DNA of 64,000 nucleotides from Phytoseiulus persimilis (Eukaryota; Arthropoda; Arachnida; Mesostigmata; Phytoseiidae), in assembly GCA_037576195.1 (NCBI GenBank), contig CM075101.1, positions 3,038,001-3,102,000 of the forward strand, read 5' to 3'. The first letter of the stretch is position 1. Every line of letters begins with the position of its first letter. The notes under the pieces are model-generated. The model had not been told where the DNA came from and searched no databases. It saw only the letters and a list, made by a program, of their open reading frames with translations. Positions 1 through 64,000 of this stretch are shown in pieces. Position numbers and translations under genes: made by a program.

Positions 1-301
1 ATACAGCGGCATCGGCTGACGAGCCGATGGCCATGGTATGGCGTCCCTGACGGAAGCGCACGTCTATAGTTACCCTCTCATGTAACCCCGATCCATAGGA
101 TATATAAGCAGCTTCTTTTTCTTCAATAAACATCGTATTCTATCTATCGCTGTAGTCGTCGTAATTGTCGCGTACGCTACGCCGACGCTGTATCAGTTCT
201 CAGTCCGCTTTCTGAAGAACGGTGCCTACGACTCTTCGAGTATACGGAACCAGAGGCTCTCATCATTCAGATTAAGTTTAAAGTGCACGGAATCTTCGAC
301 A
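1..301 (+). repeat. copia-1 left LTR (5' end outside window)
   Basis: Matches 8746-9046 at 300 of 301 positions; the difference is at 102 versus 8847, inside the TATA motif. It ends in ...TTCGACA, the CA of a TG...CA LTR. The sequence right after it (302 onward, CGTTATCAGCACGATACTCC) is the position of the primer-binding site; I could not match it to a specific tRNA. Confidence 0.95.
99..130 (+). promoter_or_regulatory. LTR core promoter and polyadenylation signal
   Basis: TATATAAG at about 101-108 is a TATA-box match, and AATAAA follows at 125-130. The same pair is in the right LTR (TTTATAAG near 8846) and in copia-2 (TATAAAAG near 33933). The order TATA then AATAAA within about 25 bases fits an LTR in which the transcript start lies close to the poly(A) signal. 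The exact start is not determinable here. Confidence 0.6.
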
Positions 302-344: not shown

Positions 345-3300
345 GTGCAAATACTTCCTTTTGACATCGGTCCCACTTGGAGCGACCTACCTAGGGCCAT
401 GGCAGACGACGACTACCAATACGATCTGGCTGCGCAGGAAGATGAACCTGCCGCGCTAAAGAAGGACGATTCAGAGCCCCGTCCATCCGACTCGAACTAT
501 ATCAGGCTTGCCCCATGCTCAGTGACCCTAGTTCTGTTTGGTCAAAACTATTTGAGTTGGAAATCCTTAATGCCCATCTTTCTACAACAAACCGTAGATG
601 TTTGGGAAGTCGCGGAAGGAAACCTGGTTGAACCAGTCCCAATCGAACCAGCTACCGAACTAAATGATGATCAAAAGAAAGTCAAGGTTCGGTATGATAG
701 AGCAAATCGAAAAGCAAGACTTCAATTGTTCTCTTCGATCGACGACAAACTGATAGTCCAAATGTTCTACGGACAAACTCAGGATGTCGGAGCAGCGGAC
801 ATCTGGTCCCAGATCGCAAGCAAATTTGGGGTCCGAGCCGCCCTGCGGCAAGGTTCGGCGATCGCGAAATTGATGCAGTTCAAGTTCAATAAGAGCAAGA
901 CTGCTGACCAGAACCTGGATAGGTTCCGCGATCTCCAAGCCGAACTCACGGATTCCGGAATTGAGATCGAGCAGAGGGTTCAGGTTGAACAACTGCTCAA
1001 TGCTCTGCCACATAGCTGGGAACCCCTTCGCATGGCTTTCTCAGCCCGACCAGAAGGCGATAGGGATGTCTCCAGTCTGATGGAAATTATCAAGAACGAA
1101 GCAATTCGCCAAAGACCATCCAAGGAATTGGAGCAGGCGACTGCTATGCTTTCTCAGATGAGAGTTGGTCGCAGGTTTGCACCGAAACGTAGATTCCAAA
1201 ATTGTTCTCATCGAAGAAATGCCCCCAGCCACCATTCACAAGGATCCAGCAGCAGTGGCTATGGTCAACAGACCCGTTCACGCCACCACAGTAATAGACC
1301 AAACAGAAGACAAGTAAAGTGTTACAACTGCGGTGCGACAGGACATTTCAAGTCCCAGTGTACCCGTCCTCGGCGAGATCAAGGTTATCAAGGAGGAAGC
1401 GGACAGCACAGATCGCATGCTCGAGCAAGCACTGCCGTCGCACTCCTGGCTCACGTCAAGTATGACACGAGCGAAACCGATGAGTTCCTCGTAGATTCCG
1501 GCGCCTCGCACCATTGCAGTCGTTCAAGAAAGTGGTTCACTAGCTTTGACCAACAAACCGACATGCGCGCCGTCACCTTAGCAAGCAACCAGAAACTGCG
1601 TGTCACCGCTTCTGGCACAGCCGAGCTGACTGTCGGAGAGTCCAAGCAGCGAATGGCTTTAGAGCTTAAAAATGTTTTACTTGTCCCCTCAGTTCGAAAG
1701 AATCTCCTCTCTGTGAGTCAATTGACAGATGATGATTTCGAAGTGACGTTCAAAAGGAATCACCTCATAATTTCGAGAAACGATATGAGGATCCGAGTAC
1801 CCAAGATAGAAGGCCTCTACAGATTAAGAATGGACTCGGAGATCGGATTACTACAAGATCAGGCAAGCGATCAAGAATCCGTAAACCAAGACGCAGACAG
1901 CGATCTTGACGACATGAATCATGATATTCCGTCTGAAAGCCAAGTGATGAGCGCCATTGGCTCAGAAAAGACGATGAGTGCACAGAAGCAGAGCCTTAGA
2001 AGCCTGCATGAAAAGTTCGCCCATGTTAATAGGCAGTACGTGATTAAATATTTGAACCAGCAGGGTATCAAGTACATTGATGATCTAGACCAATGTGACG
2101 CCTGTCTGAAGGGGAAGCTCACCCGAATCACGTACAGGAGCCGCCCTGATCAGGCGAAAGCTCACAAGCCGGGCATCATAACGGCAGACCTTTGTTCGCC
2201 TAATGTAGAGTCAATAGAAAAAGCAAAGCATTTCCTTCTATTCACTGACGAAGCAACCAGCTATCGAAAGGTCGAGTTTCTCCAGAAAAAGAGCGACACT
2301 TATCGATACGTTGCCTCCTACGTGAAATGGTTCAGAAACGTAGTTGGCGAAAACATTCAGAGGTTGCACAGTGACAACGGAACGGAGTTCAGAAACCAAA
2401 AGGTTAAGAAGATCCTGGAAAGGATCGGAGCAGAACAAACGTTCGCCCCTCCAGGACAACCCCGTTTGACAGGAAAAGCAGAGAGAGGAAACAGAACTCT
2501 CGTGAATCTAGCTCGATCAGTGTTGATCGGAGCAGGCCTCGAAAATAAGAAGTTCCTTTGGGACCAGGCGATCCTTTTCTGTGTTCAAGTTTTGAACCAA
2601 GTACTGATAAATGAAAAGACTCTACAGTCGCCTTTCGAGATGATATACAGGCGAAAGCCATTCACCAGCAGAATGTACGCATTTGGCACACCGTGCTACG
2701 TACACAATAAAAACCCAAATGGGAAGCTGGATGACCGCGGAATCGCGGGGATATTCGTTGGGTACCTAGACTACGATCTTGGATTTCGTGTCTACATCCC
2801 AGAGAAACGAATTATCATGCGATCGAAGGACGTAACATTCGCGAAGATCGCTTCCACTAAAAAGCAAGGTTCTGGGAGAACCAAGGCAAGTGGAAAAACA
2901 AGTGCTTCGGAAAATACTGCGGAAGCAGCGCACATTGCGAAAGAAGCCAATCACGATACGGAGGTCACAGGTTCAAGAATAAAATCACCAAAGCCAGCAG
3001 CACCCATGTACGAAAGCGCCTCAAGCGATTACGAAAGCGACGAAGAAGGTTTCGTACGCATTAATCCCAAGGCGAACAAGAAACGTACGGAAAGACTGCA
3101 GATTGTGGCTGACCTCAACCATCTTAGTGGGATATCGAAAAAGGAAAGGGCAGCAGCCGACACCGTTCAGCCAAAAAGCCAAACGCCAATGACTTATCAA
3201 GAAGCAATGGCAAGCCCCGATCGCGTCCATCGGACGAAGGCCGTTGAAGAAGAACTTCAGGCAATGGCTGACATGAAGGTGTGGACTCCCGCAACACTAC

Positions 3301-4613
3301 CACCTGGACGTAAGGCCATTGGCTCCAAATGGGTATTCAAGTACAAGGCTAACCCAGATGGCACAGGACGTTACAAGGCTCGAGTAGTTGCGAAGGGATA
3401 TTCGCAGAAGAAAGAAATAGACTTCTTTGCAGACAAGATATACAGCCCCGTATCCCGAGCTGAAGGAATCAGAACGATCCTCAGTCCAGCAGCGCAGGAA
3501 AAACTTTTCCTAAATCAGTTTGATGTACGCGCAGCTTTTCTTCAAGCAGAACTCGAGGAAGACCTCTATCTTGAGGTGCCTGAAGGCGTAAGAGGAGTAC
3601 AGGCCAACAAGGTATTGAAACTACTGAGAAGCATATATGGCCTCAAGCAGTCAAGCCGAAATTTCTTTGATAAGCTAACGAAGATCCTTCTGTCCAGAGG
3701 ACTTCAACAGAGCAAAACTGACAGCTGTATCTTCTTCAAGAATGGAGAAAATCGCATGCTCTTGTGCATATGGGTCGATGACGCCATACTTGCAACGAAG
3801 ACTGAAAGACAGGCGGAGGAATTCATAACTTCCCTCAGGAAAGAATTCGAGATCACTACTTCTGGTCTTAGATACTTTCTAGGTCTTCAGATCGAATGTG
3901 ACAATTCGATATACTCTATCGAGACCAACGGTCCGTGCTCTAATACCGAATATCGTTCTCTGATAGGAGCTCTCCTATATTTGGCTTGCGGTACGAGAGT
4001 TGACATTTCTTTTGTCACTTCCTACCTATCAAGATATATGGACAAATCAACTCCTCAGCATTTCCAGGCTGGCTTGAGAGTTCTGAGATACTTGAAGACA
4101 ACCTCAGATCTGGGCATCACGTACAGAAGTGATGACACCCAAGGCACGCTGTACTTCAGCGATTCAGACTTCGCTGGATCCATTGAGGATCGCAAGTCTA
4201 CTTCAGGATGTCTGATACTCAGACAGGGGGGGCCAATTATTTGGAGCTCCACAAAACAAGCGAACATTTCGCTTTCCTCCATGGAATCAGAGTTCGTGGC
4301 ATCTACAGAATGCATCAAGTCAGCGCTCTGGCTTCGCAACCTTCTGGGAGAATTGGGTATCCCAGAAAAGCCGATCATCCAGATAGATTCGATGTCAGCC
4401 ATTCAATTGCTAAAGAATGCCAGACACTATCGTAGAGCTAAGCATATGGAACTGAGATTTCATTACATTCGACAGCTCTACTCGAATCAAGAAATTGGCA
4501 TCGAGCACGTTGGAAGCGCAAATCAAAGAGCGGACTACTTAACCAAGCCCTGTGTAAAGTCAGTATTCCTCAATCAGAGAGAACTGTCAGGACTTGAGAG
4601 ATGGCGTCAGTAA
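345..4613 (+). CDS. gag-pol: copia gag-pol polyprotein (in-frame deletion in RT region)
   Basis: One open frame of 1422 codons with the copia order. Capsid-like gag is at residues 50-260. A CCHC zinc knuckle (CYNCGATGHFKSQC) is near 325-340, and an aspartic protease (FLVDSGASHHC) near 380. The integrase HHCC domain is near 555-590, followed by its catalytic D (ITADLC), D (HSDNGTEF) and E (GKAERGN) at about 613-711. Reverse transcriptase has YGLKQ and WVDDAIL near 1143. RNase H is C-terminal. A second ATG at 399 sits in a stronger context (GCCATGG) and may be the real start. Compared with copia-2, 33 residues are missing in frame just after the RT motif YFLGLQIE (near nucleotide 3896), so the enzyme may be defective despite the open frame. 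Confidence 0.95.
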   Translation: MQILPFDIGPTWSDLPRAMADDDYQYDLAAQEDEPAALKKDDSEPRPSDSNYIRLAPCSVTLVLFGQNYLSWKSLMPIFLQQTVDVWEVAEGNLVEPVPIEPATELNDDQKKVKVRYDRANRKARLQLFSSIDDKLIVQMFYGQTQDVGAADIWSQIASKFGVRAALRQGSAIAKLMQFKFNKSKTADQNLDRFRDLQAELTDSGIEIEQRVQVEQLLNALPHSWEPLRMAFSARPEGDRDVSSLMEIIKNEAIRQRPSKELEQATAMLSQMRVGRRFAPKRRFQNCSHRRNAPSHHSQGSSSSGYGQQTRSRHHSNRPNRRQVKCYNCGATGHFKSQCTRPRRDQGYQGGSGQHRSHARASTAVALLAHVKYDTSETDEFLVDSGASHHCSRSRKWFTSFDQQTDMRAVTLASNQKLRVTASGTAELTVGESKQRMALELKNVLLVPSVRKNLLSVSQLTDDDFEVTFKRNHLIISRNDMRIRVPKIEGLYRLRMDSEIGLLQDQASDQESVNQDADSDLDDMNHDIPSESQVMSAIGSEKTMSAQKQSLRSLHEKFAHVNRQYVIKYLNQQGIKYIDDLDQCDACLKGKLTRITYRSRPDQAKAHKPGIITADLCSPNVESIEKAKHFLLFTDEATSYRKVEFLQKKSDTYRYVASYVKWFRNVVGENIQRLHSDNGTEFRNQKVKKILERIGAEQTFAPPGQPRLTGKAERGNRTLVNLARSVLIGAGLENKKFLWDQAILFCVQVLNQVLINEKTLQSPFEMIYRRKPFTSRMYAFGTPCYVHNKNPNGKLDDRGIAGIFVGYLDYDLGFRVYIPEKRIIMRSKDVTFAKIASTKKQGSGRTKASGKTSASENTAEAAHIAKEANHDTEVTGSRIKSPKPAAPMYESASSDYESDEEGFVRINPKANKKRTERLQIVADLNHLSGISKKERAAADTVQPKSQTPMTYQEAMASPDRVHRTKAVEEELQAMADMKVWTPATLPPGRKAIGSKWVFKYKANPDGTGRYKARVVAKGYSQKKEIDFFADKIYSPVSRAEGIRTILSPAAQEKLFLNQFDVRAAFLQAELEEDLYLEVPEGVRGVQANKVLKLLRSIYGLKQSSRNFFDKLTKILLSRGLQQSKTDSCIFFKNGENRMLLCIWVDDAILATKTERQAEEFITSLRKEFEITTSGLRYFLGLQIECDNSIYSIETNGPCSNTEYRSLIGALLYLACGTRVDISFVTSYLSRYMDKSTPQHFQAGLRVLRYLKTTSDLGITYRSDDTQGTLYFSDSDFAGSIEDRKSTSGCLILRQGGPIIWSSTKQANISLSSMESEFVASTECIKSALWLRNLLGELGIPEKPIIQIDSMSAIQLLKNARHYRRAKHMELRFHYIRQLYSNQEIGIEHVGSANQRADYLTKPCVKSVFLNQRELSGLERWRQ

Positions 4614-5152
4614 TGCAGCAGGTATTCGTAGCAGTAACAATATTCATAATCCCCTCTAACCAATATTTTAGCTACCCAGACTGCGACGCCAAATGCATAT
4701 CACAAAACTCTCCATGTATGTTAGTCAAACTGGATTCTGGTAGATTCTCATCATTTTGTACACCACTAGCATTGTGTGAACTACACACCACTGAATACGC
4801 TCCCTGTATCAAAGAGTCTTCTCCAACCTCTGGAGGACTCAGACTGTGGCCCGAGTATCGCAATCGAACTCTGCCACCAAGGCCGACTGTTAAGCCATGT
4901 CCACCAATTCCACAAACACCGAACTGCGATTTCTGGAAGTACCTATCCGCCATTCAAGGGGTAGTGTCACTCAGTACGCTTTCGGGAATTGTGATGCTCA
5001 AACTACTAAAGTTCAGCGCTCGTTTGTCTTACGAGCCAGTGGACACTTCTATAGTAGACGATCCGACCATGCCGTACAGAACAACTGTCCAAAGCATTGA
5101 CGAAGCCTCCGGCAGCGGGATCGAGCGACAGCAGTCTCCCCCTTCAGAATAA
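4601..5152 (+). CDS. envelope-like type I membrane protein of copia-1
   Basis: 183 residues, overlapping the last 13 bases of gag-pol in another frame; the same overlap is kept in copia-2. The N-terminus is hydrophobic (residues 5-18, signal-peptide-like). The ectodomain has eight cysteines (about 28, 32, 39, 53, 59, 69, 100, 109), one N-glycosylation sequon (NRT, 88-90) and a proline-rich stretch before a membrane segment at about 114-135. A 45-residue polar tail follows. All eight cysteines and the sequon are conserved in copia-2 although about 15 percent of residues differ. This is the layout of a small envelope-type glycoprotein, but I do not recognise the family and see no fusion peptide or furin site. 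Expression may need the spliced mRNA suggested by the donor at 335. Confidence 0.75.
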   Translation: MASVMQQVFVAVTIFIIPSNQYFSYPDCDAKCISQNSPCMLVKLDSGRFSSFCTPLALCELHTTEYAPCIKESSPTSGGLRLWPEYRNRTLPPRPTVKPCPPIPQTPNCDFWKYLSAIQGVVSLSTLSGIVMLKLLKFSARLSYEPVDTSIVDDPTMPYRTTVQSIDEASGSGIERQQSPPSE

Positions 5153-5296: not shown

Positions 5297-5901
5297 TTAA
5301 CAAGGAGGAATGATAAAATCACAGCCGGAGTTAAACCAGCTCGTGAAAGCATTTTCCGTTAGGCCTCTCGGCCAGAGATCCGGATTTGCGTAGAGGTAGG
5401 TGCGGATCTTCTTCACCTCCTCCACGATGACGCGGTTCGCCGCCAGATCTTCCAGGCGACCCCGGTATTCTGGGGTCCTCGCCTCCCACTCGGCAACGAT
5501 CAACGAGGCTGGGATGCGGCGCTCGTGATCGCCGAAGGTGTCGCGGATCAGACTGTTGAACTCGTCGAATCCGCGCCTCGACGGAGCTGGAAAGCGATCC
5601 AGATGGAGATGGACCTTGGCGCTCTCCACGGCCGAGCGGTCGCTGCTCGGCATCTGCATAGCGTCGAGGAACCGCAGTCCCTCGAAGTCTCGGCCCAGGT
5701 GGTTGAACCTGAGCAACGAGATTGCTGGTGTTCACACCAGCAATCTGCAACCGAGCAGTAGCAGATCCGTGGCAGCGATTTCCACAGAGCCATGTCACAG
5801 CTGGGATCTTCGACATCATCCCAGGTGACCGTTGGTCTGATTGTTGGGGACGGGCCCTTGTACCCGCAACACGGGCATGCATCGGGCCGGATCGCAGACA
5901 T
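5297..5901 (-). pseudogene. antisense gene A (Cys-rich protein), frameshifted copy
   Basis: Aligns to the intact 200-residue frame at 39643-40245 in copia-2. The N-terminal part (ATG at 5901) has the cysteine clusters CPCC, CYC and CWCEH, a likely metal-binding region. The C-terminal part continues in another frame from about 5716 (MLRFNHLGRDFEGLRF...). The frame changes near 5715-5725, where copia-1 carries about two extra bases relative to copia-2. It reads on the strand opposite to gag-pol and converges on the envelope-like gene. The family is not recognised. In this copy the protein is broken unless the shift is tolerated. Confidence 0.7.
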
Positions 5902-6239
5902 AGTTGTAGATGAAGTTGAGAGTCACTGAGATGGTACACACTAAAAACGTTGTGAACTCCGAAACGTCGGAGACATCTTTTAAGGCATGACCCGAGCCAT
6001 AAAGCGAGGGGAAGAATCCGAGAGAAGGAAAGCTACGAAACAGGGATAGCTTGACCCCAGATGCTCACTAAAAGAATGTTTAGCCGAAGAAATCAATCAC
6101 TAACAAGCAACTCGAAACCCACTTAGGAATCCGAATGGCTGTACCGCTTCAAAGCTCCAAGATAGCTGCAGCATCATCCGAGCATCGGATGGCATCTAGA
6201 TCTTGAGTACACAAACGAGAAAATCGACGACACGTTCTC

Positions 6240-6806
6240 TTAAGAAAAACTTATGAGCTTCCTTTTATTCTCACATGCGTCGGTCACCAGGACTGTCTGA
6301 GCAAACATGTCCATGTTAATGATGAATCGGTGAGCTGTGATGATTTTGAGATTGGAATTTGAATTTGGCCGGACCACACATACATTCTGATAACCATCCA
6401 CACAAATTTTGAATTTTGGGTATGAACGACAAATGAGGTATGAGGTGTGAATGTCAATCGAACGTCCTTCGGTTATGATGTGGTGAAAGATGTCGGAGGA
6501 TGAGAAGGTCTCCACACCCGTCGTCACCACCGGGCCCTCGATGGTGTGTAGGGCCGGTGGGAGAGGACGGGTGACTTCGCTATGTACACGATCAGCGAAC
6601 GGGGCCACGCGTTGCGCGAGCTCAAAAGCGACGCCTGGGACGGTCACGTACATTAACATACAAAGAGCGGCAATGGCAGCCAACCGCATACGTCTGAGGT
6701 TTCTCGACCTCCAGGAGCCACGGCAATTGTACAACGTACAATATGCGGGTTCGTCGGCAGTCGTTGACTGCGGGCTCTCCAGGGCACCGTGATTTCCGGA
6801 ACGCAT
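6240..6806 (-). CDS. antisense gene B, type II membrane protein
   Basis: 188 residues with an uninterrupted frame. A basic N-terminal tail (about 1-41) precedes one hydrophobic segment (about 42-62), then a 126-residue outer domain, so a type II single-pass orientation is likely. Cysteines 126, 135, 143 and 178 form the spacing C-x8-C-x7-C-x34-C. Gene C has nearly the same pattern, so B and C look like paralogues. The start ATG aligns with that of copia-2. The copia-2 version is frameshifted and its N-terminal half is strongly diverged. No intron is needed here, unlike gene C. Function unknown; surface exposure or secretion is inference from topology only. Confidence 0.65.
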   Translation of the reverse strand: MRSGNHGALESPQSTTADEPAYCTLYNCRGSWRSRNLRRMRLAAIAALCMLMYVTVPGVAFELAQRVAPFADRVHSEVTRPLPPALHTIEGPVVTTGVETFSSSDIFHHIITEGRSIDIHTSYLICRSYPKFKICVDGYQNVCVVRPNSNSNLKIITAHRFIINMDMFAQTVLVTDACENKRKLISFS

Positions 6807-7105
6807 CTATGTGTGTAAAGGGACCAATTCAGAACCTAGAACTTGTCCATATGACAAAGAGAAAAACAGGTCGGACGAGACTTACATTCGATTTCTGGAT
6901 CAGAGAGTTGTTTTTTTCTTTACTCGACAGGCTCCTTTGTTTGGCAGAGAAACGACTCGGCACACCAATGGAGAAGAGTCAGGCCATTTCATAGGGACAA
7001 GAAATCACAATTTCTTAAAGCATACGGAGCATAGAATGTATGCAGAAACACAGGACGATATACCACGATAAAAGAGAGGATGCATGATAAGTACAATTGA
7101 AGTGA

Positions 7106-7111
7106 TTTATT
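7106..7111 (-). terminator. AATAAA poly(A) signal for antisense gene C
   Basis: Reading the minus strand, AATAAA occurs 10 bases after the stop codon of gene C (stop at 7121-7123). It supports transcription of the antisense genes as independent polyadenylated mRNAs. The signal is changed in copia-2 (TTTGTT on the plus strand). Confidence 0.5.
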
Positions 7112-7120
7112 CAGAATCAA

Positions 7121-8460
7121 TCAGAGAAATATTCCAATGTACCAAGAAAAATTTCTGCATCTCGGTATCGTCCCGTACAGCTTCTCAAAGGACGCTCGAT
7201 CTGACTCAGATAGCTTCGCTACTTTCAGCGACTCAGAGACCCTAAGAGGATTGGGTCGACCGCTGGAGTCATATCGAGTAGGCTGTATCAGGCAGATAAA
7301 GTCTGCAGTAGAAACACATACGGAGAGATTATGAGATCTATGCCAGCACACAAATTTGTTTGGTCTATAGTAGTATTTGTGTGGACGATTCTTCAGATCT
7401 TTCATCAGCTCCTTGATCTTGAGCATAGTCGAAACAATCATGGGTCTCTCCGATTGTGCAGCAGTAACTTCTTGTGTTGAAGAACGATGCGGGTGGATGA
7501 CGTCGGCGATTATTGTTGAAATCTCCGACTCCGGTCGAATTGTAGTCGAGCGAGTGTTGTCAATTAGCGAATCCTCAAGACGACGCTCAACAGAATTGCC
7601 TGCCTGATTCACGACGATTGGAACCTCGATCGATCTATTAGAAGCCGGCACTGCGATGGGAACAACACGATCACTAGCCGAAATCAAAGCTGGATCGGCC
7701 GACTGCGGAACCGTTACAGACTGCTCTACAACACGTGTTCCGCCACCGACGGGGAGAGAGTGATCCGAAGCAGACGTCCACGCGCCATCAGCATTCAACA
7801 GAATCGGCGAAGGAGAGGAAGTCGTTTCCGTAACATCAACAGAAGCGTTCGTTTGTGCGAGGATGTGTTCTGGAGTGGTATTCCCAGAAGCATCCAGTTC
7901 AATTGCCCCGGACGCCAATAATCCAATCGAGACATTCCTCGAAATGGGGGGCCGTGTGATGTTCTCTACAGCCCTGCCATTATAAACATCAACGCTCGCC
8001 GCCAACGAACACAAACAAGATCCATCCGGAAAAAGCAAAACGGACAGATTCGTTGGAGCAGACCCGAGTTCCTTCAACAGATGAGCTGACGATACGCCAT
8101 CACCATGAGGATAAGTAGGATCTGCAAATATGGTCGATATATCGAACACCAGAAAGGCATAAAAATATACGCATCAAAATATCGACGATACTAACGCTCA
8201 GTGATCCAGGCCAACATTGCCACATTTCCAACCAATGACAATAGGCAAAGGACGAGCAACAGAAGGAGCGGACGTGTACAACAGGAAACAGGACCGGAAA
8301 CAATCACGTCCGGAACATAACGAGGCTCCAGATCACCGTCAAGATTGACCTCACTCATTTCGTATTGCTCAGCTTGAGCAACATCGTAGGAACCACGAAA
8401 CCGTCGAAATCGAGTGAGACGCGCAATCAACGAAGACATCTTCAGAGCTCGAGATTTCAA
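7121..8460 (-). CDS. antisense gene C, spliced type II membrane protein
   Basis: Two exons on the minus strand: 8460-8196 and 8121-7121. The 74-base intron (8122-8195) begins GTTAGT and ends TTTGCAG. It is phase 1, and joining the exons keeps both frames open, giving about 421 residues. Exon 1 encodes a 64-residue basic/acidic tail and then a strongly hydrophobic segment (LLLLLVLCLLSLVGNVAML). The intron falls right after this segment. Exon 2 encodes a long Ser/Thr-rich outer domain and, near the C-terminus, the cysteine pattern C-x9-C-x7-C...C shared with gene B. Without splicing, exon 1 stops at 8191. The C-terminal third is well conserved in copia-2. Family unknown. Because it is antisense to the genomic RNA, its intron would survive retrotransposition. 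Confidence 0.65.
8122..8195 (-). other. predicted 74-base intron in antisense gene C
   Basis: Donor GC|GTTAGT at 8195, acceptor TTTGCAG|A at 8122, phase 1. It contains in-frame stops, so splicing is needed to join the membrane segment to the outer domain. A matching phase-1 intron after the membrane segment occurs in the homologue at 20390-21190. Confidence 0.6.
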
Positions 8461-8715
8461 GACAATATGAAACTCGACAGACTCAACATCGAACTAAGGG
8501 AGTCTGGTGACATAAGCGAGGAGATCGAACAACAAGAACCAACATTCAAGGAATCTCCCGAATCAACCACACGCTCTGGAATGTGAATATATGATACGTA
8601 TGGCTAGAATCATAGTATAGAATTCTAGGCGACTTATTTTCGGATAAGGTTCATTTTGATTATTACGAATTACGCGTATATGCATTCTTGCCCGCCTGCT
8701 TGAAATGGGGGGCTT
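8461..8715. other. upstream region of antisense gene C
   Basis: 255 bases between the gene C start and the right LTR, where a promoter for the antisense genes would be expected. I see no clear TATA box. The polypurine tract for plus-strand synthesis should be next to the LTR; GAAATGGGGGG at 8702-8712 is the best candidate. Confidence 0.4.
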
Positions 8716-9046
8716 TGTTGTAATATTTCGCTCAGACGGCCAAGCATACAGCGGCATCGGCTGACGAGCCGATGGCCATGGTATGGCGTCCCTGACGGAA
8801 GCGCACGTCTATAGTTACCCTCTCATGTAACCCCGATCCATAGGATTTATAAGCAGCTTCTTTTTCTTCAATAAACATCGTATTCTATCTATCGCTGTAG
8901 TCGTCGTAATTGTCGCGTACGCTACGCCGACGCTGTATCAGTTCTCAGTCCGCTTTCTGAAGAACGGTGCCTACGACTCTTCGAGTATACGGAACCAGAG
9001 GCTCTCATCATTCAGATTAAGTTTAAAGTGCACGGAATCTTCGACA
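8716..9046 (+). repeat. copia-1 right LTR
   Basis: 331 bases, starting TGTTGTAATATTTCGC and ending TTCGACA. It is identical to the left LTR over the visible 301 bases except at 8847. The start was set by the TG and by the matching start of the copia-2 LTR at 33803. Confidence 0.93.
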
Positions 9047-10748: not shown

Positions 10749-13217
10749 TCAGTAATGTGTCGAGAGGATTTCAGAGCGCAGGATTTCGAGCATCATTTGT
10801 CGCCGAAACTCTGGCATGTCCTCCTGGTTGAAGTCGAAGTTGGCGTAACGAGTGGCACAATCCGCGGGTCTCAACATGAAAACCCCGCAGTCTGATCCGT
10901 TTTCTTGTCGGGGGAGATCCGAGCTTAGAGGGAGGAAGAGCCATTCATGAAGATTGAATCTGGATCGTTTCTTGTCCCTTATCTCGTCCTCCAAGTAATG
11001 CGTCAGCGTCTCAAGGCAGTCGACGTTCGGTCTGCCAAGGGAATCCATGTAGCTGATGTTTTTGTCCTTGAGATCGACGATTGCCACGCGATTCCGTACT
11101 CGAGCTGGTAGAGCGGGAGGAAATGTCGAGTTTACATGGGGATCGAGATAGGTCGAGTGGGAAAGAATATTCGTGAGTGCATAAAAACTTCTGAAGCTAT
11201 ATCGGAGGTAACTCACAGGCTTCCACACGATATTTCAAACGCTCGACAAGTTCTCTCGGAGAAATCCGTCCTGCGGTCAGCTGCTCCCAACACTGTCGCG
11301 TGGTTTGCTCGTTCAAGAGGGTTTTTTTACTCGGCATGGAGCGGATGTTCTCGATCCCCATCGCCATTGCAGAAACTCTACAGCCCCATCTTGGAGTCTT
11401 GCACACAGCTCCCCTGGAAAGTGTTCGTCGGTCAGTTTGATCTGCGTATACGTTCCTCGGGGCAAGGGAGGAGGAGACAGCGCAAGAGACTCGGAGAAGA
11501 AACGCATTCCCATGAGCGCCCAAATGTTTGCCTGGGTCCCCACTCGTCGCTTCAAGCTCGCGTTGAAAGACTCGACATCATTGTTCGTACGGGTCGGTGC
11601 CCGGAACAATGACAGATTCGCAGGCCCGATGGTACCAAGCCACTGTCGACGAAGGTAGACGACGAAGGGCTCGAACTAGAAAATGAAGCAGTCTCGTTGG
11701 GGAGTCAAGGCACAGATACCAATGCAGGTCATCTCGTTACATTAATCATTCCGGAAACGTTCTGGTGTGAGTACTCACGCCTTGGCTGACTCTAAGAGCA
11801 TCGATTTCGCATGACTTGAGGATTTGCTCAATAACGTCCGCCGGGAGGAGCGGCAGAGCCGTGAAGGCTAGGAATCGTCCCAGTATCGGCCCTGGTCTGC
11901 GCAGTTCTTGGGCGAAGCCGATCCGCGATGAGCTCGCTCGATGTACCAGGCTTTGCGCATACTGGAAAAGACAGCCATACAGGCGCGCCCCGGGGAACTC
12001 GGTGAGCACTGCTGACCGCAAAGCCTGGTCAAAATCGCCCATGTACTCGGTAACGACGAGATCAGGAACCTCCCGCCGGAGAGCGCGGAGTATTTCCACG
12101 TAGGCTTCAGCTCGAGCTGAATTCATGAATGCGAACGCTACCATCGCCTTCTGAAATGGAGGAACTGTGGATGAGCGAATGCAAAAACGATATGGAACTC
12201 TCTGAGGTTAAATTCCGTGGTGCTCTACTCCCTCGCATGGCATCGCAGATGGTTTCCCGAATCAACCCAGTTTGCGTGGATCGTGAACAGCTGGTCACAC
12301 AGGCCATGGGGGTGGTCTCGGTACGTCGCATCCGCCTGTATCATGGTAGTCCTGCGCACGTTTCCGAGCTGACGTCGGCTTGTGACCAGGACTTTGTCGA
12401 ACTCGGTGCATCGAACGATGATCACGAGCTCTCCATCTTGTGTTCCGTTGTAACCAGGAGATCTTTCTCTGTCAGCGCAGTGTACAACTCGTCTAGATTG
12501 TGCACAGGCTCAGGTCTTTCGGAGGCTCTCCATCTCCTCAGCGTTCGCAGATGGCGCACGGGAACGATGTGAACAGCTTCCTCCACTGGCAAGCTAGACC
12601 AAGGTTTTCCGTTGGTTGATGAATTCAGGACGCATTTTCCCGGCTCTCGATTGATGCGGCTGCATGACACACAGAGAGGTATTCGCTCACCCTCGACGTT
12701 CATCTAGGAGGACACTGAGAGGATCCCGTTCGGGATTTTAGCGTATTTCTCGCGCCGTACACACTGTTTCCATGGCCGTCGTGTTCCGGCAGATGATTGT
12801 GAGTTTCGGGTCGGAGGCGAATCTGACCATTCGGCTGGATTTCCCCCCTGACATCGCATTTGTGCGGCCTCGGCCTGCGAAGAATTCAGCTGCTATTGAT
12901 CTAACACCGTGAGCACCTAGTCTAGAGAATACGAGAGGCACGAAATTTCGTATTGCTCCGTAACGGTTGTCCCTCCATCAGGATAAGATCACTTACTTTC
13001 GCCAATTCCTACACTTGATTATGATGAAACCGTCACTCGATGTGGTTTCTTCGGTGGAAAAGAACTCTGACTCCCCAACCTGCGGGCCCAAGGCATAGGT
13101 GCCTTGCCTGTCACACCACACAAAGGGTCTGGGCGGTTTTTGCGGACCCAACTTCATTGTTTCTAGCGAACGGAAGATCGCCGGAGGTTGAAGCTTGCTG
13201 TGGAAGCTCCACTCCAC
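10749..13217 (-). pseudogene. MULE-A: decayed transposase with C-terminal Ulp1-like protease
   Basis: Minus-strand exons in order. 13217-12993 is the first half of a FLYWCH-like zinc-binding domain (VWCDRQGTY...IIIKCRNW), ending at a GTAAGT donor. About 12890-12740 is its second half (CDVRGEI...HNHLPE). 12703-12425 is a linker, with a frameshift near 12425. About 12425-12255 holds the first catalytic Asp (IQADATY). An intron ends TTTCAG before 12152. 12144-11746 is the DDE core (EYMGDFDQAL...YGCLFQYAQS). 11609-11530 holds the third acidic residue (TRTNNDVES). The C-terminal conserved region reaches 11197. An Ulp1/C48-like tail at 11228-10749 keeps Asp (YMDSLG) and Cys (QENGSDCGVF), but the usual His-Trp is replaced (NRVAIVD) and the N-terminal half is missing. 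Not functional as it stands. Confidence 0.8.
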
Positions 13218-13389: not shown

Positions 13390-13563
13390 CGTAGTATCCG
13401 CGTAGGAATACGAACATGCCGCCAATGGATTAGGCGAGGGGATCGGAAGAGATCTCCCCGCAGCAGGCCAAGGTGCCGCGCTGCCAGATATAAGGGAACG
13501 TTCAATAAACATGAGTGTCTCTCGCACGACGACGGTACGTGTGGTTCACTACGCGACACCACA
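13390..13563 (+). repeat. gypsy-1 left LTR
   Basis: 174 bases ending in GACACCACA. The first base is C where the right LTR has T (TGTAGTATCC). It contains GATATAAGG and AATAAA (near 13504-13509) as promoter and poly(A) signals. Confidence 0.93.
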
Positions 13564-13629
13564 TTTGGCGCAGTCGACAGGATCTCGTGCGAACCGACGG
13601 CGAGACGATCAGTTGTGTGAAACGTCGCG

Positions 13630-14886
13630 ATGGCCGAGCAGAACGGAGGATTGGCGCCGATGCCGGCGTTTTTGCAACAACCGGGCGAACCACCGGTGCC
13701 CTGGGAGGACTGGATCGAGGATTTCCAGACGTACCTCCTTGCCCGAGGCGGGACCGAAAAATGGTCCGTCGAACGAAGAGTCGCCCTGCTGGAGTACAGC
13801 CTTGGTCAAGAGGGCCGAGCTCAGTACCGGGCGCTCCAGGAGGAAGGCGCTGAAGGTGAGGACGAGTTTGAAAAGACCGTATGCCGCCTGAAACGGCGCT
13901 CCGCGACGGAGAAAGGGCTCGCGGCCGCTCGATTGGAGTTCGTGAAAAGGAGCCAACAGCCGGGTGAAACCATCAAGGATTTCGCAGGCGCGCTCAGGAA
14001 GTTGGGAAACAAATGCAGCTTCCCGATGAGCCTCGATGATGCGATTCTGACTCAGCTTACAGTGCACACCACGAGCGAAGCCGCCCGGGAAAAACTGATG
14101 AACGGCGAAGAGACCGACACGTTTGAAGACGTGGCGACCAGAGCCGCAGAGGCGGAACGAAACGTAAAGGAGGCGGTGGAATTTGTGAAAACGACATCAC
14201 CAAGCGTCAATTGGGTCGGGTCGAGGCCGACGTTCCGAGGTCCTAGCAACATGGCGGAAGCCAACAGCAGCAACGGTGGACCGAAGTGCAAGCGGTGCGA
14301 CAGTGACCGTCACGACACGCAGGCCTTGAGGTGCCCAGCCCGAAAAGCTGTGTGCCGGCGAAGTAAGAAGACGGGATACTTTGCGAAAGTGTGCGGAAAC
14401 TGGGACTCACGCGGAGTCAACGTGGTGGATGCCCTGCCCGAGCCGAGGATGACACCGCAGGAATGCTGGGACGACGTTGCCGACGATTGGGAAGCAGCAA
14501 AGCTACAAAACAGTCAGTGCGATAATAAAATTGTACCCATCTATTCAATGAGTTCTCAGCCAACCGATAGGAAGATTATAGTCGAAACTAGAATAGGAAA
14601 CAGGACAGTTCAGTTTCTAGCCGATACCGGCGCTGCGGTGTCGATCTTAAATGTACATGACGTTAGTTTTGAAAGATCAGAGATGCGTCCAGCTGGGTTC
14701 GTCCTGAAAGGGTACGTGGGCCAGCTGGTGAGAGTTCTTGGAATTTGGGAAACGACGGTGACGGTTGGGAATGGAGCGGCCAGTTGCGCATTCTGCATTG
14801 TGGAAGAAGGTCGGTCGTTGCTGGGAAGGGATTCACTGGGTAAGCTCGACGCACGCATCGGATCAAAGAGGGCACGATCGAAGTGA
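13630..14886 (+). CDS. gag: gypsy-1 gag-protease
   Basis: 418 residues. The N-terminal two thirds resemble the retrotransposon gag capsid family (VRRLKRR...SQQPGETIKDFAGALRKL at about 70-120). Near residues 218-258 a cysteine-rich stretch stands where zinc knuckles are expected (CKRC...RCPARKAVC...GYFAKVC). The last knuckle lacks the canonical second Cys and the His (CRRS and GYF), so it is degenerate. An aspartic protease motif (FLADTGAAVSIL) is near residue 330. The frame ends at 14884-14886, overlapping the pol frame by a few bases. Confidence 0.9.
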   Translation: MAEQNGGLAPMPAFLQQPGEPPVPWEDWIEDFQTYLLARGGTEKWSVERRVALLEYSLGQEGRAQYRALQEEGAEGEDEFEKTVCRLKRRSATEKGLAAARLEFVKRSQQPGETIKDFAGALRKLGNKCSFPMSLDDAILTQLTVHTTSEAAREKLMNGEETDTFEDVATRAAEAERNVKEAVEFVKTTSPSVNWVGSRPTFRGPSNMAEANSSNGGPKCKRCDSDRHDTQALRCPARKAVCRRSKKTGYFAKVCGNWDSRGVNVVDALPEPRMTPQECWDDVADDWEAAKLQNSQCDNKIVPIYSMSSQPTDRKIIVETRIGNRTVQFLADTGAAVSILNVHDVSFERSEMRPAGFVLKGYVGQLVRVLGIWETTVTVGNGAASCAFCIVEEGRSLLGRDSLGKLDARIGSKRARSK

Positions 14887-17783: not shown

Positions 17784-17870
17784 ATAGGAAATATTGTGCT
17801 AAGTTGTACTCTAAAATAAACACGGCTCTTGTATCAGTGGTGGAGTCAGACTTAATTATGGAAGGGAGAG

Positions 17871-18044
17871 TGTAGTATCCGCGTAGGTATACGAACATGC
17901 CGCCAATGGATTAGGCGAGGGGATCGGAAGAGATCTCCCCGCAGCAGGCCAAGGTGCCGCGCTGCTAGATATAAGGGAACGTTCAATAAACATGAGTGTC
18001 TCTCGCACGACGACGGTACGTGTGGTTCACTACGCGACACCACA
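17871..18044 (+). repeat. gypsy-1 right LTR
   Basis: 174 bases, TGTAGTATCC...GACACCACA, followed by CTTTT. Preceded by the polypurine tract at 17861-17870. Confidence 0.94.
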
Positions 18045-18049
18045 CTTTT

Positions 18050-39638: not shown

Positions 39639-39644
39639 TTTATT
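39639..39644 (-). terminator. AATAAA overlapping the stop of antisense gene A
   Basis: On the minus strand the stop codon TAA of gene A is part of TAATAAA. This poly(A) signal supports independent minus-strand transcription. Copia-1 has AATGAA at this place. Confidence 0.4.
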
Positions 39645-40245
39645 AACAAGGAGGAATGACAGAGTCACAGCCGGAGTTGAACCAGCTTGTGAAGGCGTTC
39701 TCCGTGAGGCCTCTCGGCCAAAGATCCACATTAGTGAAGACATAGGTTCGGATCCTCTTCACTTCCTCCACAACGTCGCGGTTGACCGCCAGGTCCTCCA
39801 AGCGACCCCGGTATTCAGGGGTCCGCGCCTCCCACTCGACGACGATCAGCAAAGCTGGGATGCGACGTTCGTGATCGCCGAAGATGTCGCGGATGAGACT
39901 ACTGAATTCGTCAAATCCGCGCCTGGGCGCAGGTGGAGGGCCCTCTGACCTGAGGTGGACCCTGGCCTGCTCCACGGCCGAGTGGACGCTGCTCGGCATC
40001 TGCAGGAAATCGAGGAACCGCAGTCCCTCGAAGTCCCGGCCCAGGTGGTTGAACCTGAGCAGCGACTGCCGGTGTTCACACCAGCAGTCCGCAATCGAGC
40101 AGTAGCAAATGCGGGGCAGCGTTTTCCACAGAGCCATGTCGCAGTCCGGATTCTCGACATCCGCCCAGGTCACCGTCTCTCTGATCGTAGGAGACGGCCC
40201 CTTGTATCCACAACAAGGGCAGGCACCGGGCCGGATCGCAGACAT
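39643..40245 (-). CDS. antisense gene A, intact copy, Cys-rich protein
   Basis: 200 residues from the ATG at 40245. The frame is open upstream to 40443, but homology to copia-1 and the shared ATG favour 40245. Cysteines 9, 11, 12, 35, 47, 49, 54 and 56 with His 58 (CPCCG...RICYCS...DCWCEH) suggest one or two metal-binding sites in the first 60 residues. The rest is charged and predicted soluble, ending ...VIPPC. No membrane segment. It is antisense to gag-pol. I do not recognise the family; RNA binding or regulation would be a guess. Confidence 0.65.
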   Translation of the reverse strand: MSAIRPGACPCCGYKGPSPTIRETVTWADVENPDCDMALWKTLPRICYCSIADCWCEHRQSLLRFNHLGRDFEGLRFLDFLQMPSSVHSAVEQARVHLRSEGPPPAPRRGFDEFSSLIRDIFGDHERRIPALLIVVEWEARTPEYRGRLEDLAVNRDVVEEVKRIRTYVFTNVDLWPRGLTENAFTSWFNSGCDSVIPPC

Positions 40246-40579
40246 CACGGTTGAGGATGGCTTGGGGGATACGAGACAGAGGTACACTAGGAGTATTGTG
40301 AACTCCGAAACGTCGGAAACATCTTTTAAAGCGATGACCCGGACCACAACGCGAGGGGAAGAATGCGAGCGAAGGAAAGCTACGAAATAGGAATAGCTTG
40401 ACCCCAGATGCTCACTAAAAGAATGTTTAGACGATGAAATCAATCGCTAACAAGCAACTCGAAACCCACTTGAGAAATCCGAATAGCCGAAGCGCTCCAA
40501 AATAGCTGCAGCATCATACGAACATCGGACAGCATCTAGACCTTGACTACACAAACGAGAAAATCGAGAACACGTCCTC

Positions 40580-41108
40580 TTAGGAATAACTGAACAGTTT
40601 TCGTTTATCAGTACAAACATTTGCCACAAGGACCGTATGCGCGAAAAAGCTGGGATCAACTTTGAAGGGATGGGCAGTTATAATTTTGAGGGCGGAATCG
40701 AATTTTGGGCGTAAGACGCATACCTTTTGGTATCCATCGACGCAAATTTTGAAGTTAGGATAGGGACGGCAGATGAGGTAAGAGGTGTGAACCTCAACCG
40801 ACCGTTCCTCAATTTTGACCAGCTGCCGTGAACACCACCGGGACCTGGATGGTGGGTAGGCCCGGTGGGAGCGGACGGACTTTTTCAGGCGGTGAGGAGA
40901 CGTTATCCGTGTACGCCATGATGGCGTACGCGACGCCGGCGACAATAACGTATATTGGAAAAGCCGCAAGGGCCAGACCGAAACATTTCACGAACGAACG
41001 ATCGCGATGCCATCGATTGTTGGGTGTGTCACACATTTGCTCATAAGCTCGCCTTTCGGCGACCGTGAATCTCGTCCGATCAAAGTGGATGGTTTCACGG
41101 GACGGCAT
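40580..41108 (-). pseudogene. antisense gene B, frameshifted copy
   Basis: The ATG at 41108 aligns with the copia-1 ATG at 6806. The first frame (41108-40809) holds the basic tail and a hydrophobic segment (ALAAFPIYVIVAGVAYAIMAY). The second frame (to 40580) holds the C-terminal module with the same C-x8-C-x7-C...C spacing (YLICRP...KICVDGYQKVCVL). The shift lies near 40815-40835. The N-terminal half is much more diverged from copia-1 than the neighbouring genes, while topology is kept. Confidence 0.65.
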
Positions 41109-41435: not shown

Positions 41436-42047
41436 TCAGAGAAATATTCCAATGTACCAGGAGAAATTTTTGCACCTCGGAATCGTCCCGTACAGCTTCT
41501 CAAAGGAAATTCGATCTGACTCAGACAGCTTTGCTACTTTCAGCGACTCAGAGACCCTGAGAGGATTGGGTCGACCGCTGGAGTCATATCGAGTAGGCTG
41601 TATCAGGCAGATAAAGTCTGCAGTAGAAACACATACGGAGAGATTATGAGATCTATGCCAGCACACAAATTTGTTCGCTCTATAGTAGTATTTGTGTGGA
41701 CGATTCTTCAGATCTTTCATCAGCTCCTTAATCTTGAGCATGATCGAAACAACCATTGGTCTCTCCGATTGTGTAGGAGTAACTTCTTGTGTTGAAGAAC
41801 GATGCGGGTGGATGACGTCGGCGATTATTGTTGAATTAGAAATCTCTGACTCTGGTCGAGTTGTAGTCGAACGAGTGTTGTCAATTGGCGAATCCTCAGG
41901 ACGACGCTCAACAGAATTGCTTGCCCGATTCACGAAAATTGGAACTTCGATCGACCTATTAGAAGCGGACACTGCGATGGGAACAACACGATCACTAGCC
42001 GAAATCAAAGCCGGATCGGCCGACTGCGGAACCGTTACAGACTGCTC
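41436..42047 (-). pseudogene. antisense gene C exon 2, interrupted copy (C-terminal part)
   Basis: Matches copia-1 7121-7718 at roughly 96 percent by eye and keeps the C-x9-C-x7-C...C module. The Merlin insertion at 42048 cuts the exon. Upstream pieces of the same exon are at 43574-43586, 55511-55676 and 63958-64000. Confidence 0.8.
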
Positions 42048-42168
42048 GGTATTTTTCGGTCAGGCGGGTTTCGAAGAAAAACAACAAACCACGAAACGCC
42101 GGTATGCCGAGTTGGCGAGTGGGAGAGGGAAATGAGAGAGGAGAAACTCGAAAGAGACTTACCAGGCA

Positions 42169-55510: not shown

Positions 55511-55676
55511 TCTACCAACACGTGTCTCGCCACCAACGTGGAGAGAGTGATCAGAAGCAGACGTCCACGCATCATCATCATTCAACGAAATCGGCGAAGC
55601 AGAGGAAGTCGTCTCCGTAATATCAACAGAAGCGTTCGTTTGTGCGGAGCTGTGTTCTTGAGCGGTTTCCCCAGAG
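55511..55676 (-). pseudogene. antisense gene C exon 2 of copia-2, middle fragment
   Basis: Aligns to copia-1 at about 7724-7890 on the same strand (CAACACGTGT...GAGAGAGTGATC..., then GAAGCGTTCGTTTGTGC). It ends at the MULE-D target site. This fragment and its neighbours prove that copia-2 was a single element before the MULE insertions. Confidence 0.9.
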
Positions 55677-60896: not shown

Positions 60897-61009
60897 ATAG
60901 AGAAGTGCTCCGTCGCCGCTTTGACCCTTTTTATTGAAAACTAGCCGGCCTTCGGCCGACTACGCTGGCCGACCCGTCCCTTGCTTCGGGAGTCTACTGC
61001 TGACAGACT

Positions 61010-61770: not shown

Positions 61771-62040
61771 GGAATTTTTATGATGGATTTTTATGATAGA
61801 TGTATAGGAGAGGAGGTGGGGAAGGATATCCGATGACGACGGGATGAGTCTGGCTGGCGTCATAACGGGGCGGTGCACCTCATCGTCAGATTTTGGATGC
61901 GGATGACAGTATGGAGGGGGTCAAAGTTGGGGTAAATCGCGAGGGGGGGAGGAGGGGAGGAGGAGGGGGGAGGGGTGGGTGGCCTATGTCCTTCCCGGAG
62001 AGCCGCCCTACATTATGCAGTTTGTTCCAAGTCGATCCGA
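61771..62040. other. G-rich low-complexity sequence
   Basis: Includes a GGGGAGGAGGGG-type purine run at about 61938-61977. No gene. Confidence 0.5.
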
Positions 62041-63957: not shown

Positions 63958-64000
63958 TCCCCAGAAGCATCCAGTTCAATTGCCCCGGACGCCGACAATC
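63958..64000 (-). pseudogene. antisense gene C exon 2 of copia-2, fragment at window end
   Basis: CCCCAGAAGCATCCAGTTCA and onward matches copia-1 7885-7925. It marks the right junction of MULE-D and shows that copia-2 continues beyond the window. Confidence 0.9.

What the first reader, a model, noticed from the sequence alone, without database searches (positions are those of the whole stretch)
5297..8460. Copia retrotransposon carrying three antisense accessory genes
Sequence: between the envelope-like gene and the right LTR of copia-1 lie three minus-strand frames (A 5297-5901, B 6240-6806, C 7121-8460), all recurring in copia-2. A is intact in copy 2, B is intact in copy 1, and C is readable in both as far as visible. 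Knowledge: copia elements normally end after RNase H; antisense ORFs are known in some plant LTR elements, but a multi-gene antisense module in an animal copia is not something I know of. Inference: the element makes a second, convergent transcription unit encoding a Cys-rich soluble protein and two surface-type proteins, so it may behave more like a virus than a plain retrotransposon.
Basis: partly seen in the sequence, partly recalled or inferred. Interest (0 to 1): 0.9.

Follow-up and report, generated by a model that had tools for sequence, protein, structure and literature searches.

The report
Copia elements with spliced antisense genes
In an arthropod genome, a family of copy-and-paste mobile elements (copia retrotransposons) carries a second set of genes on the opposite DNA strand, apparently with introns, that look like cell-surface proteins and have been kept by natural selection, which hints that these elements may travel between cells somewhat as viruses do.

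Summary
The antisense frames are real genes, not chance. Window copy 1 is a complete copia insertion (331-nt LTRs, 1 mismatch; TSD AATAA) with gag-pol, a sense env-like gene, and antisense genes A, B and C. Across family-1 copies, dN/dS in the minus-strand frames is 0.25 (A), 0.28 (B) and 0.31 (C), like env (0.28); on stricter rows 0.23, 0.28 and 0.28. Other frames sit near or above 1, except the mirror frame that shares third codon positions. Six other env-bearing copia families in the genome (RT 37-56% identical) have antisense genes with this Cys domain (F6 and F7 by iterated profile only); in five, a phase-1 intron follows the transmembrane segment. B behaves as an exchanged cassette (dS 0.33 against 0.04 for C in the same 8 copies). 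No significant relative of A, B, C or env was found in the libraries searched. Transcription, splicing, protein and function are not shown. Best reading: an ambisense, virus-like copia lineage whose antisense glycoproteins act at the cell surface, perhaps for cell-to-cell transfer. New variant of a known kind.

The parts
1..301 (+). 5' LTR of copia-1 (331 nt; its first 30 bases lie before the window at G000:C1:3037971-3038000); TG...CA ends; preceded by TSD AATAA
   Evidence: self-comparison of the two LTRs, 1 mismatch in 331
345..4613 (+). gag-pol polyprotein ORF, 1422 aa; copia domain order gag, zinc knuckle, integrase, RT, RNase H
   Evidence: Pfam Retrotran_gag_2, zf-CCHC, rve, RVT_2 over cut-off; RNase H model below cut-off
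4601..5152 (+). env-like gene, 183 aa: N-terminal hydrophobic segment (signal-like), 8 Cys, modest TM-like segment at 115-133, tail motif PYxxT conserved in 7 families
   Evidence: omega 0.284
5297..5900 (-). antisense gene A: Cys-rich protein of about 200 aa (CxC...CxC), no TM-like segment; frame broken in this copy, open in others
   Evidence: upstream limit approximate
6240..6806 (-). antisense gene B: 188 aa, predicted type II membrane protein, TM near residues 42-60, C-terminal Cys domain; no intron; divergent cassette
6200..7000 (.). cassette of high divergence between copies (10-31% in 6 of 11 copies compared) that holds B and its upstream spacer
   Evidence: 200-nt windows against 11 copies
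7121..8121 (-). antisense gene C exon 2: ectodomain with 8 N-glycosylation sequons, C-terminal Cys domain
8122..8195 (-). predicted antisense intron of C, 74 nt, GTTAGT...TTTGCAG, phase 1
8196..8439 (-). antisense gene C exon 1: 81 codons plus 1 base, N-terminus and strong TM (residues 58-76)
8702..8715 (+). polypurine-tract-like stretch (type of feature recalled; read from the sequence)
   Evidence: sequence just before the 3' LTR
8716..9046 (+). 3' LTR of copia-1, followed by TSD AATAA 9047-9051
39643..40443 (-). A in copia-2, open frame of 266-267 codons (protein from 40245)
40580..41108 (-). B in copia-2, broken into two overlapping frames
41436..42059 (-). C exon 2 remnant in copia-2 (residues 142-342 of the exon-2 query); its 5' part is missing

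Best explanation
The element is an ambisense copia retrotransposon. The sense strand carries gag-pol and a small type I env-like membrane protein. The opposite strand carries genuine protein genes: A (Cys-rich, soluble) and B and C (type II membrane proteins with a shared C-terminal Cys domain; C is spliced). Shown by sequence: purifying selection on the minus-strand frames; antisense Cys-domain genes in seven divergent families; frame-consistent phase-1 introns right after the transmembrane segment in F1 C and in genes of five other families; high divergence of B as a sharply bounded cassette. Inferred: antisense promoters in or near the 3' LTR and spacers transcribe these genes; the introns survive because the copied RNA is the sense strand, in which they are not recognised; B and C arose by duplication inside the element; B was exchanged between lineages by recombination; B, C and env act on the cell or particle surface, most likely for transfer between cells (for example soma to germline) or for controlling re-entry; A acts inside the cell.
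For: Omega A 0.249 (95% codon bootstrap 0.168-0.353), B 0.276 (0.195-0.377), C 0.306 (0.191-0.523), env 0.284; rows without any indel, stop or split copy: A 0.232 (n=11), B 0.276 (n=10), C 0.284 (n=10), env 0.273 (n=12). Other family: F5 proximal ectodomain 0.47, non-mirror frames 0.91-0.95, mirror 0.53. HMM of C tails: among 1005 six-frame ORFs, leaving out seeds and the F1 relative L034, the nine best hits (E 0.005-0.33) are all antisense, as are the next five (to 0.85); after iteration F1 B, F3 B-like, F4 and F5 distal lie at 3e-8 to 3e-25. Introns of 61-101 nt at 9 measured junctions; phase 1 is the longest open frame on both sides in 8 of 9. Phase-1 donor within 16 nt of the TM in 6 of 9 antisense type II TM exons (hydropathy 2.0 or more) against 1 of 9 other TM-like ORFs, that one at +67. 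GT donor in 17 of 17 stretches that hold the C acceptor. Topology, sequons, Cys. AF2 of the Cys domain, best model pLDDT 72.9.
Against: No RNA or protein evidence. F1 B, F2 B-like and F7 proximal show no such donor. The donor patterns were set after I had seen the introns, and for two junctions I chose the acceptor that fits the phase. In F5 distal, phase 2 is open 68 codons upstream against 66 for phase 1 (but 5 against 104 downstream). First-pass HMM links of F5, F6 and F7 are weak (E 0.05-1.6); iteration can drift, and one sense ORF rose to 0.025. In the F3 pair the mirror frame is lower than the annotated one (0.40 against 0.51) and env is uninformative (0.66). No known fusogen or binding fold was found; other AF2 models of the Cys domain were 39.7-69.9. 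C exon 2 has a second, weak hydrophobic peak (1.58), and charge near C's TM does not settle its orientation. No consistent TATA-like site for C (2 of 5 copies) or A (0 of 4). Poly(A)-type signal after A in only 7 of 10 copies, absent in the window copy. A is found only in F1, F2 and near relatives. Copies are related, so codon bootstraps understate the error.
Confidence: 0.72

Rival explanations
1. The antisense genes are real but regulatory rather than surface genes: as with HBZ or plant Grande gene23, they tune sense expression, integration or host silencing, and the membrane features are incidental.
For: Plant antisense ORFs and retroviral antisense genes are discussed as regulatory (review PMC7264820). 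A has no TM-like segment and a CxC...CxC pattern that could bind metal.
Against: B and C have a TM-like segment and C has 8 sequons; TM exons and, in F5 and F7, Ser/Thr-rich ectodomains are seen by eye in other families. A nuclear regulator does not need these. The HMG-box idea for A failed.
Confidence: 0.17
2. The antisense strand matters as RNA: antisense transcripts form dsRNA or piRNA precursors, and open frames are a by-product.
For: Antisense transcripts without coding capacity are reported for micropia and other elements (PMC7264820).
Against: Selection follows codon positions of the annotated frames, and introns are frame-consistent. RNA function predicts neither.
Confidence: 0.05
3. 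A-C are host genes captured recently or once by this family and now decaying passengers.
For: Introns suggest an origin from a cellular or DNA-level gene. A is confined to F1, F2 and near relatives.
Against: Cys-domain homologues sit in the same antisense place in six other families down to 37-39% RT identity. Omega is far below 1. No stand-alone host gene was noticed among the genome matches, but this was not searched systematically.
Confidence: 0.06

Closest known systems
Antisense additional ORFs (aORF-3R) of plant Gypsy elements: Grande gene23, RIRE2, Retand TRP28 (PMC7264820, parts 1-2 of 3 read; PMC11963269, passages)
   Same: [quoted passage not shown] Grande's has its own promoter
   Different: Those described there are plant elements whose proteins are nuclear or possibly DNA-binding; here copia, arthropod, several genes, type II membrane proteins, introns. 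No Transposase_28 match for A, B or C
Retroviral antisense genes: HTLV-1 HBZ (spliced) and HIV-1 ASP (membrane-associated) (search listing only; details recalled)
   Same: Antisense protein genes in a reverse-transcribing element; one is spliced, one is membrane-associated
   Different: Single genes overlapping sense genes (recalled); here a block of up to three genes beyond gag-pol and env, with paralogues and a shared intron position; direct comparison of sequences was not made
Mussel Steamer-like element MchSLE-1 antisense ORF (PMC10974842, passages)
   Same: Animal LTR retrotransposon transcribed on both strands, antisense ORF
   Different: One 67-aa ORF beside a gag-pol ORF; nothing on TM/Cys-domain genes or introns in the passages seen
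MDG1-group sORF2 fusogen-like proteins of Drosophila (PMC11952523, outline and passages)
   Same: Small membrane proteins of insect LTR elements that carry capsids from soma to germline; the working model for function here
   Different: FAST-like architecture in Metaviridae elements; the env-like gene here has a signal-like segment and 8 Cys, and B/C are antisense type II proteins
GalEa-like and other crustacean copia (PMC3587641, passages)
   Same: Copia gag-pol with PPT in arthropods
   Different: gag and pol ORFs only in the passages seen; no env or antisense genes mentioned there

Membership tests
Ty1/copia LTR retrotransposon | Pol order integrase before RT-RNase H with copia-type RVT_2 and gag_2 | tested here: met
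   Pfam Retrotran_gag_2 84-259, rve 609-706, RVT_2 978-1193; RNase H model weak, below cut-off
Ty1/copia LTR retrotransposon | Paired LTRs with TG/CA ends and short TSD | tested here: met
   331-nt LTRs, 1 mismatch, AATAA on both sides
Ty1/copia LTR retrotransposon | tRNA primer-binding site | not tested
   bases after the 5' LTR were printed but not matched to a tRNA
Envelope-bearing (retrovirus-like) LTR element | Sense membrane-protein gene between pol and 3' LTR | tested here: met
   183-aa ORF, signal-like segment and TM-like segment (hydropathy 1.71 and 1.70), conserved Cys in 7 families; prediction only
Envelope-bearing (retrovirus-like) LTR element | Homology to, or action as, a fusogen | tested here: inconclusive
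   no significant Pfam, PHROG or PDB relative; action not testable here
LTR elements with antisense aORF between pol and 3' LTR | Antisense ORF in most copies with conservation like the sense genes | tested here: met
LTR elements with antisense aORF between pol and 3' LTR | Homology to the known plant aORF domains (TRP28, SMC) | tested here: not met
   no such Pfam match for A, B or C
Retroviral antisense genes (HBZ, ASP) | Transcription from a 3' LTR antisense promoter | not testable with these tools
   no RNA data
MDG1 sORF2 / FAST-like fusogens | Short TM protein with polybasic region, Envelope-independent transfer | tested here: inconclusive
   env-like has 3 K/R in the 15 residues after its TM-like segment but also a signal-like segment and a Cys-rich ectodomain; transfer not testable

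The most novel reading that the evidence does not exclude
An ambisense, infectious-type copia lineage of arthropods: two convergent gene programmes, sense gag-pol-env and antisense spliced attachment glycoproteins, with one glycoprotein gene (B; perhaps the distal gene in F5) swapped between lineages as a variable 'serotype' cassette by recombination during reverse transcription, so that these Pseudoviridae-like elements spread between cells or hosts as enveloped viruses would.
Probability: 0.33. Interest if true: 0.92.

Novelty: new variant of a known kind. Interest (0 to 1): 0.8.

Why it matters
Animal copia elements are generally regarded (recalled) as gag-pol elements confined to a cell. 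A lineage with a conserved sense env-like gene and a conserved, intron-bearing antisense block of membrane-protein genes would be a separate route by which retroelements gained virus-like gene sets. Introns preserved in antisense orientation would be a clean sequence signature for functional antisense genes in retroelements and can be sought in any genome. B's cassette behaviour makes the question of what a retrotransposon's surface variation is for directly testable.

Tried and rejected
HMG-box reading of A, suggested by eye: rejected. No Pfam HMG match; hhalign of A against the host's own HMG boxes gave probability 0.07 against 0.03-1.53 for 20 column shuffles (of 16 boxes one locus gave no frame and one was read in a wrong frame, so 14 good rows). 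Structure of A: pLDDT 39.5, not used. Fold search of the C-tail model: best E 0.34 in PDB and 0.11 in the viral library, no match. Sub-threshold family hits were set aside as chance: DUF4880 (E 0.11, 1 of 6 A rows), bCoV_viroporin (best E 0.028, 2 of 9 Cys-domain rows, below its cut-off), CD80 for env (E 0.31). Positive selection on B as the cause of its divergence: not supported, omega 0.28 and dS high too. One-off insertion: rejected. Sense-strand coding of the same region: rejected, mirror frames have stops, with the caveat that A's mirror frame has only 1-5. F6 was first taken as lacking the module; the iterated HMM showed it. First hydropathy run used wrong exon coordinates and was redone. 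Two scans of viral contigs (A profile, C exon 2) confirmed no relative.
Full report
Setting. The window is G000:C1:3038001-3102000 of a 181-Mb genome in 127 contigs. The genome gives 89 matches to the cuticle domain Chitin_bind_4 at E <= 1e-8, which points to an arthropod; no name is given. From recall only, four large contigs and about 50% GC would fit a predatory mite, but this was not tested.

The element. Window copy 1 is a complete insertion. The two LTRs are 331 nt, differ at 1 position, and are flanked by AATAA on both sides. It spans window -29 to 9046. The gag-pol ORF (345-4613) has copia domains in copia order. An env-like ORF overlaps its end (4601-5152). Three antisense genes fill the 3.5 kb before the 3' LTR. 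A second copy lies at about 33.8-42.1 kb, and a third, nearly identical to copy 1 in these genes, lies about 13 kb before the window (L009).

Copies examined. I took the 3' half of 22 family-1 (F1) copies (the two in the window and L009-L028) and compared the genes in each. More copies and fragments exist and were not all fetched. The 342-residue exon-2 frame of C is fully open in 10 of 22, B is open from start to stop in 15 of 22 (L020 a sixteenth with a shifted start), and the full A frame is open in 6 of 22. Several copies are near-duplicates (L012/L022; L015/L023), so the rows are not independent.

Selection. Pooled pairwise NG86 on distinct rows without frameshift gave omega env 0.284 (13 rows), A 0.249 (14), B 0.276 (10) and C exon 2 0.306 (13). 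Four of the other five frames lay between 0.89 and 2.31. The mirror frame on the sense strand, which shares third positions, gave 0.38, 0.38, 0.32 and 0.38 for env, A, B and C. That mirror frame holds 1-5 stops in A, 7-9 in B and 8-9 in C. Codon bootstrap intervals exclude 1 for every gene. Rows dropped before the count: coverage under 90%, a frameshift against copy 1, or identical sequence. Three of 15 A rows kept had an internal stop. With every row removed that has any indel against copy 1, a stop, or a C split by foreign DNA, omega is env 0.273 (12 rows), A 0.232 (11), B 0.276 (10) and C 0.284 (10, interval 0.157-0.523).

The intron of C. On the antisense strand, exon 1 (8439-8196) encodes 81 residues with a strong TM and ends at C|GTTAGT; exon 2 starts at TTTGCAG|AT. 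Of 22 stretches, 17 hold the acceptor, and all 17 have a GT donor (16 GTTAGT, 1 GTTGGT). In L015 the intron is one base shorter while exon 2 stays open, and in F3 the intron is 69 nt in one copy and 68 in the other with open exons in both. Exon 2 has 8 sequons; its S+T content of 20% equals that of env.

Distant families. Starting from env-like and RT matches, I took 3' regions of six other env-bearing copia families: F2 L031, F3 L029/L030, F4 L032, F5 L033/L077, F6 L054 and F7 L055, with RT 56, 49, 47, 45-46, 37 and 39% identical to the window copy (for F3 the RT is that of L030). I also took two elements in which I saw no env-like ORF (L056, L076). The env-like proteins of F1-F7 share a Cys framework and a PYxxT tail. 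A profile from the C tails of F1-F3 was run on 1005 six-frame ORFs of 15 stretches. Apart from the seeds and the F1 relative L034, its nine best hits are antisense ORFs: B-like genes of F3 and F1, the F4 gene, both F5 distal exons and the L077 proximal gene (E 0.005-0.33); the next five, to E 0.85, are antisense too. After iteration F6 (L054 antisense 1962-2363) and F7 (L055 antisense 2479-2826) reached 6e-9 and 3e-9. The proximal genes of F5 and F7 stayed weak (0.17-1.7), one sense ORF of L077 rose to 0.025, and neither L056 nor L076 went below 1.7. For the proximal genes the link rests on Cys spacing and architecture seen by eye. The TM exon of F2's C-like gene lies outside the fetched stretch.

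Shared introns. At the end of the TM segment a GT-AG intron of 61-101 nt fits in F1 C, F3 C-like (two copies), F3 B-like, F4, F5 proximal, F5 distal, F6 and F7 distal. Phase 1 is the longest open frame on both sides in 8 of 9 junctions; in F5 distal the upstream side is 66 codons against 68 in phase 2, but the downstream side is 104 against 5. A tenth junction (L077) failed on a mistyped pattern. For F3 B-like and F5 distal I chose among possible acceptors the one in phase. As a check, 18 TM-like ORFs (hydropathy 2.0 or more) in 11 stretches were scanned for a phase-1 donor. Of nine antisense type II TM exons, six have one within 16 nt of the TM (F1 C, F4, F5 proximal twice, F5 distal of L077, F6) and three have none (F1 B, F2 B-like, F7 proximal). 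Of nine other TM-like ORFs, one has one, at 67 nt (the split into groups is mine: the printed tally was 5 of 5 and 2 of 13, because L077 distal was not in my list). The F3, L033 distal and F7 distal TM segments scored below 2.0 and are not in that check.

RT tree. F1-F4 form one supported group (96/97). F5, F7, F10/F11 and one more row are unresolved beside it; F6, F9 and F8 fall outside (86/89). So either the module is older than all seven families and was lost in some, or it has moved between families. The 3' ends of F8b, F9 and F11 were not looked at.

Other pairs. F5 L033/L077: proximal ectodomain omega 0.47 (mirror 0.53), env 0.09, distal exon saturated in dS (dN 0.41). F3 L029/L030: C-like 0.51 with mirror 0.40, env 0.66 on few changes. 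The F3 pair is therefore weak support.

B cassette. In 200-nt windows against copy 1, six of 11 copies (L010, L012, L013, L015, L021, L022) show 10-31% divergence across 6200-7000; L025 shows 6-16% with shifted limits, L020 4.5-8.9%, and L009, L027 and L028 0-3.5%. Elsewhere values are mostly 0-8%, but the part of A at 5600-6000 reaches 13.6% in three copies. In the same 8 copies dS is env 0.056, A 0.101, B 0.332, C 0.038; in the 6 of them left after the stricter filter 0.059, 0.104, 0.325, 0.037. With omega of 0.28, exchange between old lineages explains this better than positive selection; a test for recombination as such was not run.

Signals. In the 10 copies checked, an AATAAA-type signal lies 12 nt after C in 9, inside the last codons of B in 9, and just after A in 7 (absent in the window copy, L009 and L025). 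TATAAA lies 184-187 nt upstream of B in 7 of 8 copies, not in the window copy; a TATA-like site upstream of C was seen in 2 of 5 copies and upstream of A in 0 of 4.

What the proteins are. None of A, B, C or env has a significant Pfam match or a PHROG match; profiles of A and of the Cys domain, and env, have no significant PDB relative. The C tail is modelled as a small beta-rich domain with a helix (best model pLDDT 72.9; others 69.9 to 39.7) without fold match. Hydropathy suggests type I for env (signal-like start 1.71, TM 1.70), type II for B (6 K/R before, 2 after the TM) and C (TM 2.74), and soluble for A; C exon 2 has a weaker second peak of 1.58.

How it probably works. Shown: coding, selection, conservation across families, frame-consistent introns. 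Inferred: antisense transcription; splicing; survival of the introns because the reverse-transcribed RNA is the sense strand; duplication of an intron-bearing gene into B-like and C-like genes, with loss of the intron in F1 B; surface action with env. The cell-to-cell model rests on analogy with Drosophila MDG1 sORF2 (PMC11952523, outline and passages).

Literature. In nine searches I saw no listed paper that, by title, abstract start or the passages opened, describes antisense protein genes in an animal copia element; the library lacks most subscription papers. The nearest are plant elements (PMC7264820, PMC11963269), a mussel Steamer-like element (PMC10974842), rotifer elements with extra ORFs after pol (PMC5408684, passages) and retroviral HBZ/ASP (listing only). 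No relative from another species could be searched for in the protein database.

Mended after re-reading the calls: phase count 8 of 9, TATA near B 7 of 8, cassette range and copies, grouping, RT identity of F2, and the stricter omega rows.

Noticed in passing
G000:C2:5594-5605 kb and 5663-5679 kb (L037): Tandem arrays with a unit of about 1389 bp made of a fused A-B fragment, with a 322-aa open frame in many units, in two blocks of opposite orientation; a satellite or gene cluster derived from the antisense module.
   Followed up: partly
window 19.8-22.3 kb: 3' part of an F6-like copia (coiled-coil ORF +, Cys-domain gene -) lies beside an RT frame on the minus strand that runs into a TM-exon-like sequence (ORF 20782-22251 -); a rearranged or chimeric element.
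   Followed up: partly
window 42169-43101 -: 310-aa ORF with DDE_Tnp_IS1595 domain (Merlin-like, recalled), lying where the 5' part of copia-2's C gene is missing.
   Followed up: partly
L055 2823-4235 - and L054 825-1811 +: Family F7 has a 470-aa antisense frame with a long coiled-coil-like region before the TM segment; F6 has a 328-aa coiled-coil-like ORF in sense orientation. Possibly related parts on opposite strands (by eye).
   Followed up: no
window 13391-18047: Gypsy-type element (RVT_1, RT_RNaseH, rve) with 176-nt direct repeats, 98% identical.
   Followed up: no
window 61004-61771: 45-bp tandem repeat, 17 copies, translating to a 15-residue repeat in an open frame (61234-61836 +); the same type of repeat occurs at L033 3307-4503.
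   Followed up: no
window 10749-11228 - and 46120-47070 -: Ulp1-type protease (Peptidase_C48) ORF and a similar one by eye, near transposase-like fragments; possibly a DNA transposon family.
   Followed up: no
window 55514-55687 and 63936-64000: Further fragments of gene C exon 2 outside the two copia copies.
   Followed up: no
G000:C4:97-181 kb (L015, L023): Near-identical copies in opposite orientation (also other matches at C4:65 and 84 kb) suggest a large inverted duplication near the contig start.
   Followed up: no
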